Assembly: GCF_002723975.1 (NCBI RefSeq)
Contig: NZ_BEWO01000005.1
Location: 62,001-126,000 of the forward strand
Length of the DNA: 64,000 bases
Direction: 5' to 3'
From: Gluconobacter japonicus
Lineage (GTDB): Bacteria; Pseudomonadota; Alphaproteobacteria; Acetobacterales; Acetobacteraceae
The notes under the pieces were generated by a model, which saw only the letters and a list, made by a program, of their open reading frames with translations, did not search any database and was not told where the DNA came from. The translations under genes and the position numbers were made by a program. Below are positions 30,840 through 35,591 of this stretch, one piece after another (the stretch's first letter is position 1; each line of letters starts with the position of its first letter).

Positions 30840-31981
30840 TGCTCTATGGAAGTGCACTCACCAGCCTTGGCGCCTGGATCTACCTGACGCTCTTCCATGG
30901 AAAATTCTGGCAGGGCGGACCGGTTCTCAAACCTTCCACCGCTCCGCCCTGTGCCCCTGATGTCGCAATCGTCGTGCCCGCGCGCGATGAAGCCGCGTCG
31001 ATTGAAGCGTGCCTGACGTCGCTACTTGAACAGGATTATGACGGGAAACTGTCGGTCATCCTGGTAGATGATAACAGCACAGATGGAACAGGCGATCTGG
31101 CCCGCGCCCTGCCTAACCCACACAAACGTCTCACCGTCCTGACCGGTGCTTCGCGTCCTGCCGGGTGGAGTGGCAAGCTCTGGGCTGTCAATCAGGGCGC
31201 GCAGGAGGCATTGGACCACATTGGGCCTTACGGATACATCCTGCTAACCGACGCAGACATCATGCATGCGCCGAAGCATCTTTCGACGCTTCTCGCCAAG
31301 GCCCGTGCAGACGATCTGGATCTTGTTTCCGAAATGGTGGCTCTGAATTGTGAGAGTTCTGCAGAGCGCTTTCTGGTTCCGGCCTTCGTCTATTTCTTCG
31401 CCATGCTGTACCCTTTTGCATGGACGGCAAACGAGCGATCCAAAATCGCAGGCGCAGCAGGAGGGACCATTCTGCTTCGCCGGCGCGCACTGGAGCGGAT
31501 TGGTGGCATTGAGGCTATCCGGGGAGCACTCATCGACGATTGCACCCTTGCAGCGCATGTCAAACGCTCCGGCGGCCGCCTCTACCTGGGCCACAGCGCG
31601 CTCGCATGGTCGGTTCGACCATATCGTGGCGCGAAAGACATCTGGGAAATGATCGCCCGGACGGCTTACGTCCAACTCCGGCAGTCGCCGCTCCTGCTTC
31701 TTGTGACCATTTTCGGAATGACGCTGATCTGGCTCCTTCCGATCGGACTGACCGTTTTTGGGAAAGGGCGTACGAGAAAGGTTGCACTACTGACCTATCT
31801 CCTGTCCTGCGCTACATTTCTTCCAACCCTGCGACGGTTCGGACTTCCCTTATGGCGCGCGTTGCCGCTGCCGCTGATTGCCGCCTTCTATATGGCCGCA
31901 ACCATCGGCTCGGCGATCGACCATCACAGGGGCGTTGGCGTACGCTGGAAAAATCGCTCCTATACGGATGAGGCATCGTGA
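30839..31981 (+). CDS. hpnB: hopanoid-associated glycosyltransferase HpnB
   Basis: This is a GT2-family membrane glycosyltransferase; 380 residues from ATG 30839, which overlaps the hpnA stop (TAATG). Features are an N-terminal hydrophobic segment, VAIVVPARDEAASIEACLTSLLEQ, ILVDDNSTDGTGDLA, YILLTDADI (metal-binding DxD) and GALIDDCTLAAHVKRSGG. Three membrane helices lie at the C-terminus (LLLLVTIFGMTLIWLLPIGL and following). In the hopanoid pathway it is linked to head-group modification. It overlaps hpnC as GTGA. Confidence 0.96.
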   Translation: MLYGSALTSLGAWIYLTLFHGKFWQGGPVLKPSTAPPCAPDVAIVVPARDEAASIEACLTSLLEQDYDGKLSVILVDDNSTDGTGDLARALPNPHKRLTVLTGASRPAGWSGKLWAVNQGAQEALDHIGPYGYILLTDADIMHAPKHLSTLLAKARADDLDLVSEMVALNCESSAERFLVPAFVYFFAMLYPFAWTANERSKIAGAAGGTILLRRRALERIGGIEAIRGALIDDCTLAAHVKRSGGRLYLGHSALAWSVRPYRGAKDIWEMIARTAYVQLRQSPLLLLVTIFGMTLIWLLPIGLTVFGKGRTRKVALLTYLLSCATFLPTLRRFGLPLWRALPLPLIAAFYMAATIGSAIDHHRGVGVRWKNRSYTDEAS

Positions 31982-32838
31982 CAGAAGACATCTGGGGGAC
32001 GAAAGACGTCACCTCTGACAAAGGCAAAACCGACGAGAATTTCCCCGTTGGTTCTTTGCTGATTTCCCGCCATCTCCGCCCGTATGTTCATACCTATTAC
32101 AATTTCGCCCGCGTGGCGGATGACATGGTGGATACATCCGAGCTAACCCCGCAGCAGAAAATTGCCCGGCTGCGTGGGATGGCTGCCGTCATCAGGGGAG
32201 AACTACAGGCTCCGCAGCGAGCTGACGCTCAAACGGCGGTGAAGCTGAGAGAGGTTCTTATCAAGACGGGCGTCCCCCTGGAAACAGCGACAGATCTTCT
32301 TGAAGCGTTCTGCATGGATGCAGAAAAAACAAGATACGAAAGCTGGCAGGAACTCCTGCATTACTGCCGGTATTCCGCCAATCCTGTCGGTCGGTTCTTA
32401 TTGCTGCTTCACGCAGAAGGGCACGAAACGCTTGCACCTTCAGATGCTCTGTGTTCAGCGCTTCAGGTGATTAATCACCTGCAAGATGCAGCAAAAGATC
32501 TTCAGGTTCTGGACCGCTGCTACATTCCGCTGCCCTGGCTTAAGGAAGAAGGCGTTACCATTGATGACCTGAGGCTGGTGCGCAGCAAGCCCGGGCTGAG
32601 ACGGGTTTTCGACAGGATGCTTGATGGGGTGGATGCACTGAATCGCGAAGCACGCGGTCTTCCAATGCTGATCCGAGATCGACGGATGCGACTGGAGGCT
32701 GCTGTCATTGTGGAACTGTCGCATATTCTGGCAAAGCGACTGCGTCGTCAGGACCCTGTGGCCGAACGGGTTGCTCTTACAAAAGCTGACGGGGCAAAAG
32801 CCCTGCTTCTGGCAATGCGCTACTGGCCAACACACTGA
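31978..32838 (+). CDS. hpnC: hydroxysqualene synthase HpnC
   Basis: This converts presqualene diphosphate to hydroxysqualene, in the HpnC-D-E alternative to squalene synthase; 286 residues, GTG start 31978. It is a trans-isoprenyl synthase fold with DDMVDTSEL as the first Asp-rich motif. YCRYSANPVGRFLLLLH and NHLQDAAKDLQVLDRCYIPLPWL are conserved. The hpnA-B-C transcript ends at the strong hairpin just downstream, so hpnD and hpnE must be read from another promoter. Confidence 0.96.
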   Translation: MTEDIWGTKDVTSDKGKTDENFPVGSLLISRHLRPYVHTYYNFARVADDMVDTSELTPQQKIARLRGMAAVIRGELQAPQRADAQTAVKLREVLIKTGVPLETATDLLEAFCMDAEKTRYESWQELLHYCRYSANPVGRFLLLLHAEGHETLAPSDALCSALQVINHLQDAAKDLQVLDRCYIPLPWLKEEGVTIDDLRLVRSKPGLRRVFDRMLDGVDALNREARGLPMLIRDRRMRLEAAVIVELSHILAKRLRRQDPVAERVALTKADGAKALLLAMRYWPTH

Positions 32839-32843
32839 ATAAA

Positions 32844-32871
32844 AAACGGGAGGCCAGAGAGCCTCCCGTTT
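32844..32871 (-). terminator. strong bidirectional terminator between hpnC and the Tat aminotransferase gene
   Basis: A perfect 11-bp stem AAACGGGAGGC/GCCTCCCGTTT has a 6-base loop. On the minus strand it is followed by a T-run (TTTTTTATTC), giving a classic intrinsic terminator for the aminotransferase gene. It should also stop hpnABC transcripts. Confidence 0.88.
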
Positions 32872-32877
32872 GAACTA

Positions 32878-34053
32878 TCAGCCGATGATGCGGTCCAGTG
32901 CCGCACAGAACTTCTTCATTTCACTCATCGAGCCAACCGTGATGCGGGATGCGTTCGGCCAGATCGGCCAGGAGCGCCCGATAATGATGTTTTCCTTCAG
33001 GAATGCATCCTTGATCGGCCCGGCGGGCCGCTTCCAGTCAATAACGAACATATTCGCATCAGACGGGATAAAGCTGATTCCCTTCTTCTGAAGATGGTCG
33101 TAGGTCATGGCACGGGCCGCAATCATCTCACGGCGACGGGCATCAATATCGGCCTTCATGGTGAGGCTCTTCGTGCCACAGACAACCGCTGGAATCGGCA
33201 GCATATGCGTCTGGTTCACACCATCATAGCGCATCATTTTTTCATGAAGGGCAGGGGGAGCCATACTGAAGCCGAGGCGCAGGCCAGCCATTGCGAACAT
33301 TTTCGAGAATGTTCGCAGAACGACAACATCCCGCCCTTCGGCAACAAGCGCAACAGCGCTCGGAGCATTGGAGAAGTGGATATAAGCTTCATCGACAAGA
33401 ACGATGGAGTCTTTCGGCTTGTTCGCGACCAGCCAACGAATATCTTCCAGCGGCGTCAGTGTACCGGTCGGATTGTTGGGCGAACAGATATAATAAACGC
33501 CAGCGTTCGGATCCGCCTTCAGCATCGCCTTTACGTCGGTTTTATAACCGTTTGACGCATCCAGAGGCACTTTTTTAAGCGGAATCTTGAGCCATTCAGA
33601 CGCGACCCAGCCCGCTTCGTAGCTCGGATCAGCCGTCACAAGGCCACGGGTCGGAGAACAGAACGTCACAATCGTACGACAGAGTGGATCAGAAGACCCG
33701 CCCCAAGGCAAAATGCAGTTTTCTGGAATATTATCAATCTTGGCAGCCGTGCTGATCAGATCTTCGCGCGTATGACCCGTAGGGTCGTAGCGGTTTCCTT
33801 CGAAAACCGCAGCAGCACCAGCTTTGGCAGCAGCCGGGAAAGGGCCGGTCCAACACTCATTGCTGCCAATACGGACCATCTTGGTCACATCGCCAGGCGG
33901 CAGCGCCGTGAGAGGGGAGGCCTCAGCGCGCCCAACGATAGACCGTACCGCCATGCCTGCACTCAGAAGTGCAGCTACGCGGCCCAGACTACGACGGGAG
34001 TAACCGCGTGAAAGGAGATCATCTTTTGCTTCAGAGGACAGGCGGTCGGTCAT
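32878..34053 (-). CDS. Tat-exported HisC-like PLP aminotransferase
   Basis: This is a class I/II PLP-dependent aminotransferase closest to histidinol-phosphate aminotransferase; 391 residues. The first ~45 residues form a twin-arginine signal (S19-R20-R21-S, then GRVAALLSAGMAV and GRAEA before the mature start), which cytosolic HisC lacks. The catalytic core is intact: VRIGSNECWTGPFP, CSPNNPTGTLTPLEDI, VLVDEAYIHF, the PLP-lysine block RTFSKMFAMAGLRLGF, and C-terminal ASRITVGSMSEM. It should be exported folded with PLP bound. It sits antisense between hpnC and hpnD, so a periplasmic step on a hopanoid side chain or an amino acid is possible, but the substrate is unknown. Confidence 0.9.
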   Translation of the reverse strand: MTDRLSSEAKDDLLSRGYSRRSLGRVAALLSAGMAVRSIVGRAEASPLTALPPGDVTKMVRIGSNECWTGPFPAAAKAGAAAVFEGNRYDPTGHTREDLISTAAKIDNIPENCILPWGGSSDPLCRTIVTFCSPTRGLVTADPSYEAGWVASEWLKIPLKKVPLDASNGYKTDVKAMLKADPNAGVYYICSPNNPTGTLTPLEDIRWLVANKPKDSIVLVDEAYIHFSNAPSAVALVAEGRDVVVLRTFSKMFAMAGLRLGFSMAPPALHEKMMRYDGVNQTHMLPIPAVVCGTKSLTMKADIDARRREMIAARAMTYDHLQKKGISFIPSDANMFVIDWKRPAGPIKDAFLKENIIIGRSWPIWPNASRITVGSMSEMKKFCAALDRIIG

Positions 34054-34136
34054 GCTCGGTTCACGCTCCTAGAATGTCTGAAAACATATTAGAAACGAAA
34101 CGATCTTTCTGTCAAAGGGCCAATTGAGTTCCAGTT

Positions 34137-34580
34137 TCAATATTCAGGATTTTGTTTGTCCACCGGAACAGACGTAGGTTCTCCTTCTGCACCAGCATAC
34201 GTCAGCAGAAGAATGGTCGGTTCATTTCCTGACACGCCGCGATGAACATCATTCACGGATTCTGCGAAAGCTTCTCCCTGATGAAACGTCTGACTTTTCC
34301 CACTTTCCTTGTCCTGAATTGTCAGGGAGCCCTGCAGAACATATCCCGCATTCGGAAACGGATGCTTATGCCAGGGTAGGGCCGTATGGGCCGGGATCGT
34401 CAGGCGAATCATGCTGAGCTCCGGCTGGGACGTCGTATAGGGCGCGTAGGCTACGCCGTTCCATGAATGCGTGGCTTTCAGAAGATGATCGGCATGAGCT
34501 TTGGCTGACGACGATTCTGCTCGAGCCACAGAAAAACTCGAACAGGCAGCGATGATGGCAAGAAAGAGACTGAACTTCAT
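34137..34580 (-). CDS. small exported cupin-domain protein
   Basis: This is a 147-residue protein from ATG 34580, with AGGAGG 5 bases upstream. A Sec-type signal peptide (FSLFLAIIAACSSFSVARA) precedes a single cupin: motif 1 is PWHKHPFPNAGYVLQGSLTIQD and motif 2 lies around FHQGEAFAESVNDVHRGVSGN. The metal-ligand histidines of cupin motif 1 (HKH) are present. It lies just upstream of the Tat aminotransferase on the same strand (83 bp gap) and may be co-transcribed with it. The ligand is unknown. Confidence 0.85.
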   Translation of the reverse strand: MKFSLFLAIIAACSSFSVARAESSSAKAHADHLLKATHSWNGVAYAPYTTSQPELSMIRLTIPAHTALPWHKHPFPNAGYVLQGSLTIQDKESGKSQTFHQGEAFAESVNDVHRGVSGNEPTILLLTYAGAEGEPTSVPVDKQNPEY

Positions 34581-34715
34581 GGGACCTCCTGGTGGAAGGG
34601 TGTTGCCTTTTGGCATCATAGGAACGTATGGCATCCCATTCCGTTCGAGCCGACTTTGTGACAGGCCCGTTTGGCGTTAGAACGCAGCATTTCTGAAACA
34701 GGACAGGGGACAGAC

Positions 34716-35591
34716 ATGGTTTTCAGCAGGGCACGTGCTTCTTCCGGTCTTCCCTGCGCGCAGGCCGATCTTGACCATGTGGAGCATATCGTCACTGCAT
34801 CCGGCACGTCTTTTGCCCGTGGCATGAAGGTTCTGCCAGCAGCAAGACGTCAGGCCATGTTCGCAATCTATGCCTTTTGCCGCGAGGTAGACGATATTGC
34901 TGACGGCGATGCGGGCGTTGCAGATCCGCTGCAGGCTCTGCAGGAGTGGCATGACCGCATCGAGCGCCTTTATAAGGGTGAAACGCGCGATGCTTTGGAC
35001 CGCGTGCTTGTAGCGACCATCTTCCGTTTCGATCTGCGGGCTGAAGATTTCCACGCCATCATTGATGGAATGGCCATGGATTGCGGTGATCCCATCATCG
35101 CACCAGATGAAAAAACGCTTGATCTGTATTGTGATCGCGTTGCGTCAGCAGTTGGCCGGTTGTCCGTCCGGGCGTTCGGCGATTCTTCGCCAGCCGCTGA
35201 CCTTGTCTCGAAGCATTTGGGAAGAGCGCTTCAGCTCACGAACATCCTGCGAGATATTGCTGAAGATGCCGAACGCAGCCGTCTCTACCTGCCGTCAGAA
35301 CTGCTGGAACGCTTCAATGTTCCAAACGATCCGAAAGAAGCCCTGTACGCTCATGGTCTGGATGGCGTAGGCCACATCCTTGCCAAACGCGCCCATGACC
35401 ATTTCCGGGAGGCACGCCGTGCCATGAAGGACTGTGATCATAAGGCGATGCGTCCGGCGCGGATGATGGCAGCATCCTACGAGCCGGTTCTGAATGCTTT
35501 GGAAAAAAGAGGGTGGAAGAACCCTGAAGCAGTAGCAAAAGTCAGTAAAGGCTGGCGTGCGGTCCGCGCTCTGGCGGCATATGTGAAATAA
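34716..35591 (+). CDS. hpnD: presqualene diphosphate synthase HpnD
   Basis: This condenses two farnesyl diphosphates to presqualene diphosphate; 291 residues from ATG 34716, with AGGGGA about 6 bases upstream. The two Asp-rich motifs are FCREVDDIADGDAG and LTNILRDIAEDAERSRLYLP. SFARGMKVLPAARRQAMFAIYAFCREVDD is typical of HpnD. It starts a second plus-strand hopanoid block and is 4 bp ahead of hpnE. Confidence 0.97.
   Translation: MVFSRARASSGLPCAQADLDHVEHIVTASGTSFARGMKVLPAARRQAMFAIYAFCREVDDIADGDAGVADPLQALQEWHDRIERLYKGETRDALDRVLVATIFRFDLRAEDFHAIIDGMAMDCGDPIIAPDEKTLDLYCDRVASAVGRLSVRAFGDSSPAADLVSKHLGRALQLTNILRDIAEDAERSRLYLPSELLERFNVPNDPKEALYAHGLDGVGHILAKRAHDHFREARRAMKDCDHKAMRPARMMAASYEPVLNALEKRGWKNPEAVAKVSKGWRAVRALAAYVK

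What the first reader, a model, noticed from the sequence alone, without database searches (positions are those of the whole stretch)
32878..34580. Tat-exported HisC-like aminotransferase plus exported cupin nested inside the hopanoid cluster
Seen: a HisC-type PLP aminotransferase with intact SPNNPTG, DEAY and PLP-lysine motifs begins with a twin-arginine signal (R20-R21), and an exported cupin gene lies just upstream on the same strand. The two split hpnC from hpnD and are isolated by a strong terminator. Known: Tat exports folded, cofactor-loaded proteins, PvdN of Pseudomonas is a precedent for a Tat-exported PLP enzyme, and the known hopanoid aminotransferase HpnO is a different, cytosolic class. 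Inference: this could be an undescribed periplasmic step, such as amination of a hopanoid polyol head group or of an amino-sugar/keto substrate made by periplasmic dehydrogenases.
Basis: partly seen in the sequence, partly recalled or inferred. Interest (0 to 1): 0.72.

Follow-up and report, generated by a model that had tools for sequence, protein, structure and literature searches.

The report
Exported aminotransferase, probably not hopanoid-related
A vinegar-type bacterium carries a gene for an amino-group-transferring enzyme that looks exported to the cell's outer compartment; it sits inside the hopanoid-lipid gene cluster, but relatives suggest it is a lodger there and works on amino-acid-like compounds instead.

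Summary
In a Gluconobacter genome a 391-aa HisC-like PLP aminotransferase (32878-34053, minus strand) with a twin-arginine signal (R20-R21), and an exported-looking cupin (34137-34580), lie on the opposite strand between hpnC and hpnD. The enzyme belongs to NCBIfam NF006580 (487 bits, cut-off 444). The nearest characterised relative is PtaA, a Tat-exported transaminase of Pseudomonas, rather than PvdN. A hopanoid role is unlikely. The one Gluconobacter of 26 without the gene keeps the hpn block. Of 29 other carriers in the family, 19 have it away from hpn genes (11 of 21 above cut-off). Shc is missing in 12 of 13 above-cut-off carriers outside the family and 39 of 49 sphingomonad/caulobacter-type carriers. 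A published survey reports 35-aminotriol in no acetic acid bacterium. The gene has its own conserved promoter-like site and a terminator. Against: linkage is old in this lineage, and one Sphingomonas has the gene 2.5 kb from hpnL. Best reading: exported amino-acid/oxo-acid transaminase of PtaA type, substrate unknown; new member of a known kind.

The parts
32878..34053 (-). HisC-like class I/II PLP aminotransferase, NF006580/PRK09105 subfamily, with twin-arginine signal
33991..33996 (-). codons of the twin arginines R20-R21 of the Tat signal
   Evidence: invariant in the 18-sequence alignment; RR in 75 of 75 and 79 of 80 homologues
33301..33303 (-). codon of K251, the PLP-binding lysine (aligns with E. 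coli HisC K214)
   Evidence: alignment; invariant
34086..34115 (-). promoter-like site (TTGACA, 18 nt, TAATAT) of the aminotransferase, with a CGTTTCG element between the hexamers
   Evidence: 1 match in the window, 0.02 expected; TTGACA at this place in 20 of 24 Gluconobacter rows; motif counts
32844..32871 (-). intrinsic terminator of the aminotransferase
   Evidence: 12-pair stem with T-tail; z -5.45
34137..34580 (-). small cupin with a Sec-like signal peptide; optional companion
   Evidence: PF07883 29.5 bits, cut-off 27.2; distribution
31978..32838 (+). hpnC, flank (context)
   Evidence: TIGR03464 above cut-off
34671..35591 (+). hpnD, flank (context)
   Evidence: TIGR03465 above cut-off

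Best explanation
A Tat-exported, PLP-loaded transaminase of the HisC-like NF006580 subfamily that works like PtaA. It folds and binds PLP in the cytosol, is exported, and in the periplasm moves an amino group between an amino acid (or an amino-acid part of a larger compound) and an oxo acid. It is expressed from its own promoter and ends at its own terminator, and is not a step of hopanoid synthesis. Its place between hpnC and hpnD is a relocation in the Gluconobacter-Asaia lineage. Shown: family, conserved active site, conserved twin arginines, conserved promoter-like site, stem-loop terminator, distribution. Inferred: export, transaminase activity, amino-acid-type substrate, lack of a hopanoid role, direction of the relocation. 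The substrate is not determined.
For: NF006580 487 bits over cut-off 444; hisC 202 under 276.6; PtaA 299.6 under 500. The genome has its own HisC, 285.3 bits over 276.55. Nearest folds are HisC-type enzymes. HisC R322 and R335 align with R360 and R370, both invariant. 25 of 26 Gluconobacter genomes carry it. TTGACA at the promoter-like site in 20 of 24 Gluconobacter rows. G014 lacks the AT and keeps the hpn block. The 7 unlinked carriers of the family sample have 34-198 bases between hpnC and hpnD matches (read off by eye). No shc at E 1e-60 in 12 of 13 above-cut-off carriers outside the family and in 39 of 49 sphingomonad/caulobacter-type carrier genomes. Neighbours elsewhere: TauE/SafE in 18 of 80 named loci and TonB receptors in 14 of 80 (families), an arginine deiminase/dimethylargininase-type gene with an amino-acid ABC transporter, a Tat-signal DAO-family oxidase. 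PtaA is exported with its PLP by Tat and also occurs in species without pyoverdine (PMC6206403, passages).
Against: No experimental export or activity data. The hpn linkage is old: 7 genomes of other genera share hpnC-AT-hpnD and 3 more have the AT beside hpnD, so 10 of 21 above-cut-off carriers of other family genera are linked. An independent case of nearness: in Sphingomonas sp. BAUL-RG-20F-R05-02 the AT lies 2.5 kb from an HpnL gene (276 bits, cut-off 196) and 8.2 kb from hpnABCDE-shc-hpnG; of 10 such genomes with an shc match it is the only one. Neighbours differ between lineages, so no single substrate follows. The CGTTTCG motif was chosen after seeing the sequences. The signal's hydrophobic stretch is short and carries an arginine in this species.
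Confidence: 0.66

Rival explanations
1. Siderophore or peptide tailoring as by PtaA: the enzyme converts a glutamyl or similar residue of a secreted peptide or siderophore in the periplasm.
For: PtaA precedent; PtaA is the second-best NCBIfam model; TonB receptors near homologues in Acetobacter, Gluconacetobacter and sphingomonads.
Against: Score far below the PtaA cut-off (299.6 vs 500). None of the flanking genes that I scanned in the window is a TonB receptor or siderophore gene. The receptors elsewhere match siderophore models only below cut-off.
Confidence: 0.16
2. One reading: periplasmic amination of a hopanoid polyol head group.
For: Position between hpnC and hpnD in 25 of 25 AT-positive Gluconobacter and 7 other genomes; nearness to hpnL in one Sphingomonas; the enzyme making BHT from ribosylhopane is unassigned (PMC12583986, passages).
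Against: G014; unlinked carriers with hpnC-hpnD adjacent; carriers without shc; opposite strand, own promoter-like site and terminator. 35-aminotriol was found in no acetic acid bacterium in PMC12583986 section 21, although Asaia siamensis, of which strain CCM 7132 carries the arrangement (L187), was studied. A later-eluting aminotriol isomer was found in small amounts in Acidocella aminolytica, of the same family, and in Stakelama.
Confidence: 0.06
3. Exported enzyme for an amino-sugar or keto-sugar made by periplasmic dehydrogenases.
For: Acetic acid bacteria oxidise sugars in the periplasm (recalled); in L086 a quinoprotein-like dehydrogenase lies near (sequence seen, not scanned).
Against: HisC-type class I/II fold, whereas sugar aminotransferases are usually of other classes (recalled); the family is common in sphingomonads.
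Confidence: 0.07
4. A second cytosolic histidinol-phosphate transaminase with a spurious N-terminal extension.
For: HisC fold; hisC model 202 bits.
Against: Below the hisC cut-off; another gene in the genome passes it; twin arginines conserved in proteins 27-97% identical to it.
Confidence: 0.03

Closest known systems
PtaA, periplasmic transaminase A of Pseudomonas fluorescens (NF051461)
   Same: Tat-exported PLP transaminase of the HisC-like group; second-best family model; Tat export with PLP stated in the review PMC6206403 (passages)
   Different: Far under the PtaA cut-off (299.6 vs 500 bits); no pyoverdine context seen
NF006580 / PRK09105 PLP-dependent aminotransferase subfamily
   Same: Above cut-off (487 vs 444 bits)
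   Different: Nothing tested sets it apart from the subfamily, whose model names no substrate; only its place inside the hpn block is special
HisC histidinol-phosphate aminotransferase (E. coli, 1fg3/1gex)
   Same: Fold; equivalents of K214, D184, Y187, R322, R335
   Different: Twin-arginine signal; below hisC cut-off; the genome has another HisC
PvdN of Pseudomonas
   Same: Tat-exported PLP enzyme (PMC6206403, passages)
   Different: Different reaction (decarboxylation keeping the amino group) and, as recalled, another fold class
HpnO
   Same: Aminotransferase of hopanoid biosynthesis (PMC12583986, passages)
   Different: Restricted to Hyphomicrobiales in that paper; class III as recalled, and no class III Pfam model among hits up to E 1

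Membership tests
NF006580 / PRK09105 subfamily | Score above curated cut-off of 444 bits | tested here: met
   487 bits over residues 16-390
Class I/II PLP aminotransferase | PF00155 match and catalytic Lys/Asp/Tyr/Asn | tested here: met
   137 bits; K251, D221, Y224, N194 invariant and aligned with HisC
PtaA (NF051461) | Score above cut-off of 500 bits | tested here: not met
   299.6 bits
PtaA-like periplasmic transaminase (works like) | Twin-arginine signal on the precursor | tested here: met
   R20-R21; RR in 75 of 75 and 79 of 80 homologues; TatC in the genome
PtaA-like periplasmic transaminase (works like) | Export and transaminase activity shown | not testable with these tools
   needs fractionation and assay
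HisC (TIGR01141) | Score above cut-off of 276.55 bits | tested here: not met
   202.4 bits; the genome's own HisC scores 285.3
Hopanoid biosynthesis gene | Co-directional with hpn genes, no transcription signals of its own | tested here: not met
   opposite strand, own promoter-like site and terminator
Hopanoid biosynthesis gene | Co-occurs with shc across genomes | tested here: not met
   no shc in 12 of 13 above-cut-off carriers outside the family and 39 of 49 others; G014 has shc but no AT
Hopanoid biosynthesis gene | Linked to hpn genes across lineages | tested here: inconclusive
   linked in 10 of 21 above-cut-off carriers of other family genera and near hpnL in one Sphingomonas; otherwise not
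HpnO | Class III aminotransferase domain | tested here: not met
   no class III Pfam model among hits up to E 1; that HpnO is class III is recalled

The most novel reading that the evidence does not exclude
The NF006580 proteins are the exported enzyme of a widespread extracytoplasmic amino-acid pathway in acetic acid bacteria, sphingomonads and caulobacters: a TonB receptor brings an amino compound in, a Tat-exported transaminase (in some with a Tat-exported FAD amine oxidase) removes or adds the amino group in the periplasm, and a TauE/SafE transporter handles the acidic product.
Probability: 0.25. Interest if true: 0.55.

Novelty: new member of a known kind. Interest (0 to 1): 0.27.

Why it matters
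It shows that nesting inside a biosynthetic cluster is weak evidence of a pathway step, and G014 is a natural knockout that makes the point. It also points to a little-studied family of exported PLP enzymes, in which the open question of how the amine form of PLP is turned back outside the cytosol could be tested.

Tried and rejected
Hopanoid amination: judged unlikely on distribution, synteny, strand and published chemistry. Second HisC: rejected. Cupin as an obligate partner: rejected. In the 200-genome family sample 23 genomes have the cupin (E 1e-12), 10 of them without the AT (E 1e-60), and 6 of 19 AT carriers lack the cupin. Four Gluconobacter loci (L052-L055) lack it between AT and hpnD; two of these genomes (G003, G023) have it elsewhere.

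Two Sphingomonas loci (L221, L223) hold an hpnD-like gene near the AT; its best model is phytoene synthase CrtB, below cut-off, so I do not count it as hpn. Neighbours in L143-L147 (which I call Xanthomonas-like from memory) and in Sphingobium loci looked like housekeeping genes by eye (not scanned) and gave no function. My first gene caller chose antisense ORFs in GC-rich loci and was replaced; the replacement is home-made and misses genes (it missed the AT of L086-L088). The CGTTTCG-type motif is in 1 of 21 unlinked family loci and 0 of 20 outside, so it is no family-wide operator. The solved-structure search with the cupin gave nothing. PMC4545795 (passages) was irrelevant.

Not-in-print claim: searches showed no paper on this gene in hopanoid clusters. 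Of the papers listed there I opened four (PMC6206403, PMC4545795, PMC12583986, PMC8776678); the others I saw as listings only. PMC8776678 (passages) names accessory genes of acetic-acid-bacterial hopanoid clusters without it. The library holds only openly licensed papers.

Full report
What is there. The window lies on contig 5 of a 3.16-Mb genome. Between hpnC (31978-32838, +) and hpnD (34671-35591, +) lie two minus-strand genes: an aminotransferase (AT) at 32878-34053 and a small cupin at 34137-34580. The surrounding block is pyk, tyrA, hpnL, hpnA, hpnB, hpnC, [AT, cupin], hpnD, hpnE, shc, hpnG. The hpn genes and shc are (hpnG below its cut-off, 152 vs 187 bits); pyk, tyrA, rrmJ and ppx are my labels from reading, not scanned.

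The enzyme. NCBIfam puts it in NF006580/PRK09105 (487 bits, cut-off 444), with PtaA second (299.6, cut-off 500) and hisC third (202, cut-off 276.6). The AlphaFold model (mean pLDDT 84.7, pTM 0.87, 18-row alignment) matches HisC-type structures best, 3ly1 first. K251, D221 and Y224 align with E. coli HisC K214, D184 and Y187, and R360/R370 with R322/R335 (numbers counted on the alignment; the roles in HisC are recalled). All five are invariant in alignment A1. The genome has its own HisC on contig 1 (285.3 bits, cut-off 276.55).

The signal. R20-R21 are invariant. The genome has tatC. The signal is real by conservation; export is inferred.

Transcription. The terminator at 32844-32871 has its T-tract on the minus strand and so serves the AT. 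A promoter-like TTGACA-18-TAATAT lies just upstream of the AT, inside the cupin-AT gap (one match in the window, 0.02 expected). Of 24 Gluconobacter rows, window included, 20 have TTGACA at this place; the 4 without (L052-L055) are those without the cupin there. A CGTTTCG-type motif, chosen after seeing the sequences, is in 20 of 23 Gluconobacter loci (0.8 expected), 6 of 10 other hpn-linked loci (0.5), 1 of 21 unlinked family loci (0.8) and 0 of 20 outside (0.6). The gene is thus very likely its own transcription unit.

Distribution. 25 of 26 Gluconobacter genomes carry it, all 25 between hpnC and hpnD (L049-L071 and L010, and the window); 21 of the 25 have the cupin there. In a 200-genome sample of the family 19 carry it. 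together give 29 carriers of other genera: 7 have hpnC-AT-hpnD (G033, G047, G109, G172, G214, G644, G645), 3 have it beside hpnD only (G050, G073, G103), and 19 have no hpn gene within the fetched 14-19 kb. Eight of the 19 (G622, G631, G636, G637, G647, G651, G660, G717) score below the NF006580 cut-off; among the 21 above it, 10 are linked and 11 not. Named relatives: linked in Gluconobacter, Asaia, Swaminathania and, partly, Tanticharoenia (13 of 80 named loci); not linked, within flanks of at most 6 kb, in Komagataeibacter, Novacetimonas, Gluconacetobacter, Acetobacter, and sphingomonads and caulobacters except L213. Synteny inside Gluconobacter is weak evidence, because the non-hpn genes around it are conserved too.

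Tests of a hopanoid role. (a) G014, the one Gluconobacter without the AT (none at E 1e-60 genome-wide), keeps pyk-tyrA-hpnL-A-B-C-D-E-shc-G with 57 bases between the hpnC and hpnD matches and no AT or cupin match in the 17-kb stretch. In a five-protein tree it falls inside the genus (SH-aLRT 87, not starred), which suggests loss. (b) The 7 unlinked carriers of the family sample (G067, G084, G097, G165, G197, G203, G211) have 34-198 bases between hpnC and hpnD matches (read off by eye). (c) Of 21 carriers outside the family given to, 20 have no shc match; of the 13 above the NF006580 cut-off, 12 have none. All 20 family genomes given to one search have shc. Of 49 genomes behind 50 named sphingomonad/caulobacter-type loci, 39 have no shc match at E 1e-60. 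(d) PMC12583986 (section 21 read, other passages) found 35-aminotriol in 15 species, all but three Hyphomicrobiales, the three being Limimonas, Tistlia and Sphingomonas formosensis; a later-eluting isomer was found in small amounts in Acidocella aminolytica, of the same family, and Stakelama. Gluconobacter oxydans and Asaia siamensis were in the study. Asaia siamensis CCM 7132 carries AT and cupin between hpnC and hpnD (L187); that it is the same type strain is recalled. I did not see the supplementary table, and could not check by name that G. oxydans carries the gene.

A result against me. In Sphingomonas sp. BAUL-RG-20F-R05-02 (L213, G736) hpnABCDE-shc-hpnG lie at 205.9-213.5 kb of the contig, an HpnL gene (276 bits, cut-off 196) at 218.2 kb and the AT at 221.7-222.9 kb. 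A second AT copy of this genome is on another contig, beside TauE (L214). Of the 10 genomes with an shc match (this one included), it is the only one with the two close; two others have them on one contig about 100 kb (G749) and 371 kb (G741) apart, the rest on different contigs (distances by eye). One in ten could be chance or a hint of a tie; I cannot tell.

Tree. In a quick tree of 94 rows the Acetobacteraceae proteins, apart from a divergent group (L087, L088, L163), form one group, with sphingomonad and caulobacter proteins outside it. Linked rows need 2-3 changes; holding all 34 linked rows together is not rejected (p-AU 0.512). A single relocation with later losses is possible, not shown.

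Where else it sits. TauE/SafE-like genes are in 18 of 80 named loci, all from sphingomonads, caulobacters or their MAGs, in two of them (L204, L243) divergent from the AT (family). TonB receptors occur in 14 of 80 and in 9 of 74 loci from G handles (cluster c20). An arginine deiminase/dimethylargininase-type gene with a LysR regulator and amino-acid ABC transporter, often with an M20 amidase and a hydroxyacid dehydrogenase, is in Acetobacter and Novacetimonas loci among others (representatives scanned). A DAO-family oxidase with a Tat-like N-terminus is beside it in Gluconacetobacter-type loci (L074, L173) and near it in G440 (L159) (only L074's was scanned). These recurring transport and amino-acid genes point to amino-acid chemistry but fix no substrate.

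Precedent. PMC6206403 (passages) states that PtaA is a normal PLP transaminase exported folded with its PLP by Tat, is present in species without pyoverdine, and may serve other periplasmic pathways. The present enzyme fits that in kind, though the model does not call it PtaA. The primary PtaA paper was not held.

Verdict. Observation confirmed; exported transaminase likely; hopanoid role unlikely but not closed; substrate open. Ordinary to mildly interesting.

Noticed in passing
L271 (G014:C1:2026000-2043000): A Gluconobacter with a 2.2-Mb genome has no aminotransferase and no cupin in an otherwise intact hpn block: a natural knockout of the AT.
   Followed up: yes
L213 / L277-L278 (G736:C1:205900-222900): In one Sphingomonas the AT lies 2.5 kb from an HpnL gene and 8.2 kb from hpnABCDE-shc-hpnG, an independent nearness to hopanoid genes.
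   Followed up: partly
L207, L220, L227, L230, L231, L233, L235, L254: TonB receptor, TauE/SafE exporter and Tat aminotransferase lie together on one strand (order differs in L231) in several sphingomonads; possible uptake-and-transamination operon.
   Followed up: partly
L181:6001-7173 (Komagataeibacter melomenusus): The only homologue seen without twin arginines (RW in place of RR); perhaps a decaying signal.
   Followed up: no
L217, L224, L229, L237 and other Sphingobium loci: Two aminotransferase copies in tandem.
   Followed up: no
window 34086-34115 and upstream of AT in L059-L071: CGTTTCG-type element between -35 and -10 of the aminotransferase promoter, seen mainly in the hpn-linked lineage; looks like an operator.
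   Followed up: partly
L162 and L247 (Acetobacter): Two aminotransferase copies flank a TonB receptor gene.
   Followed up: no
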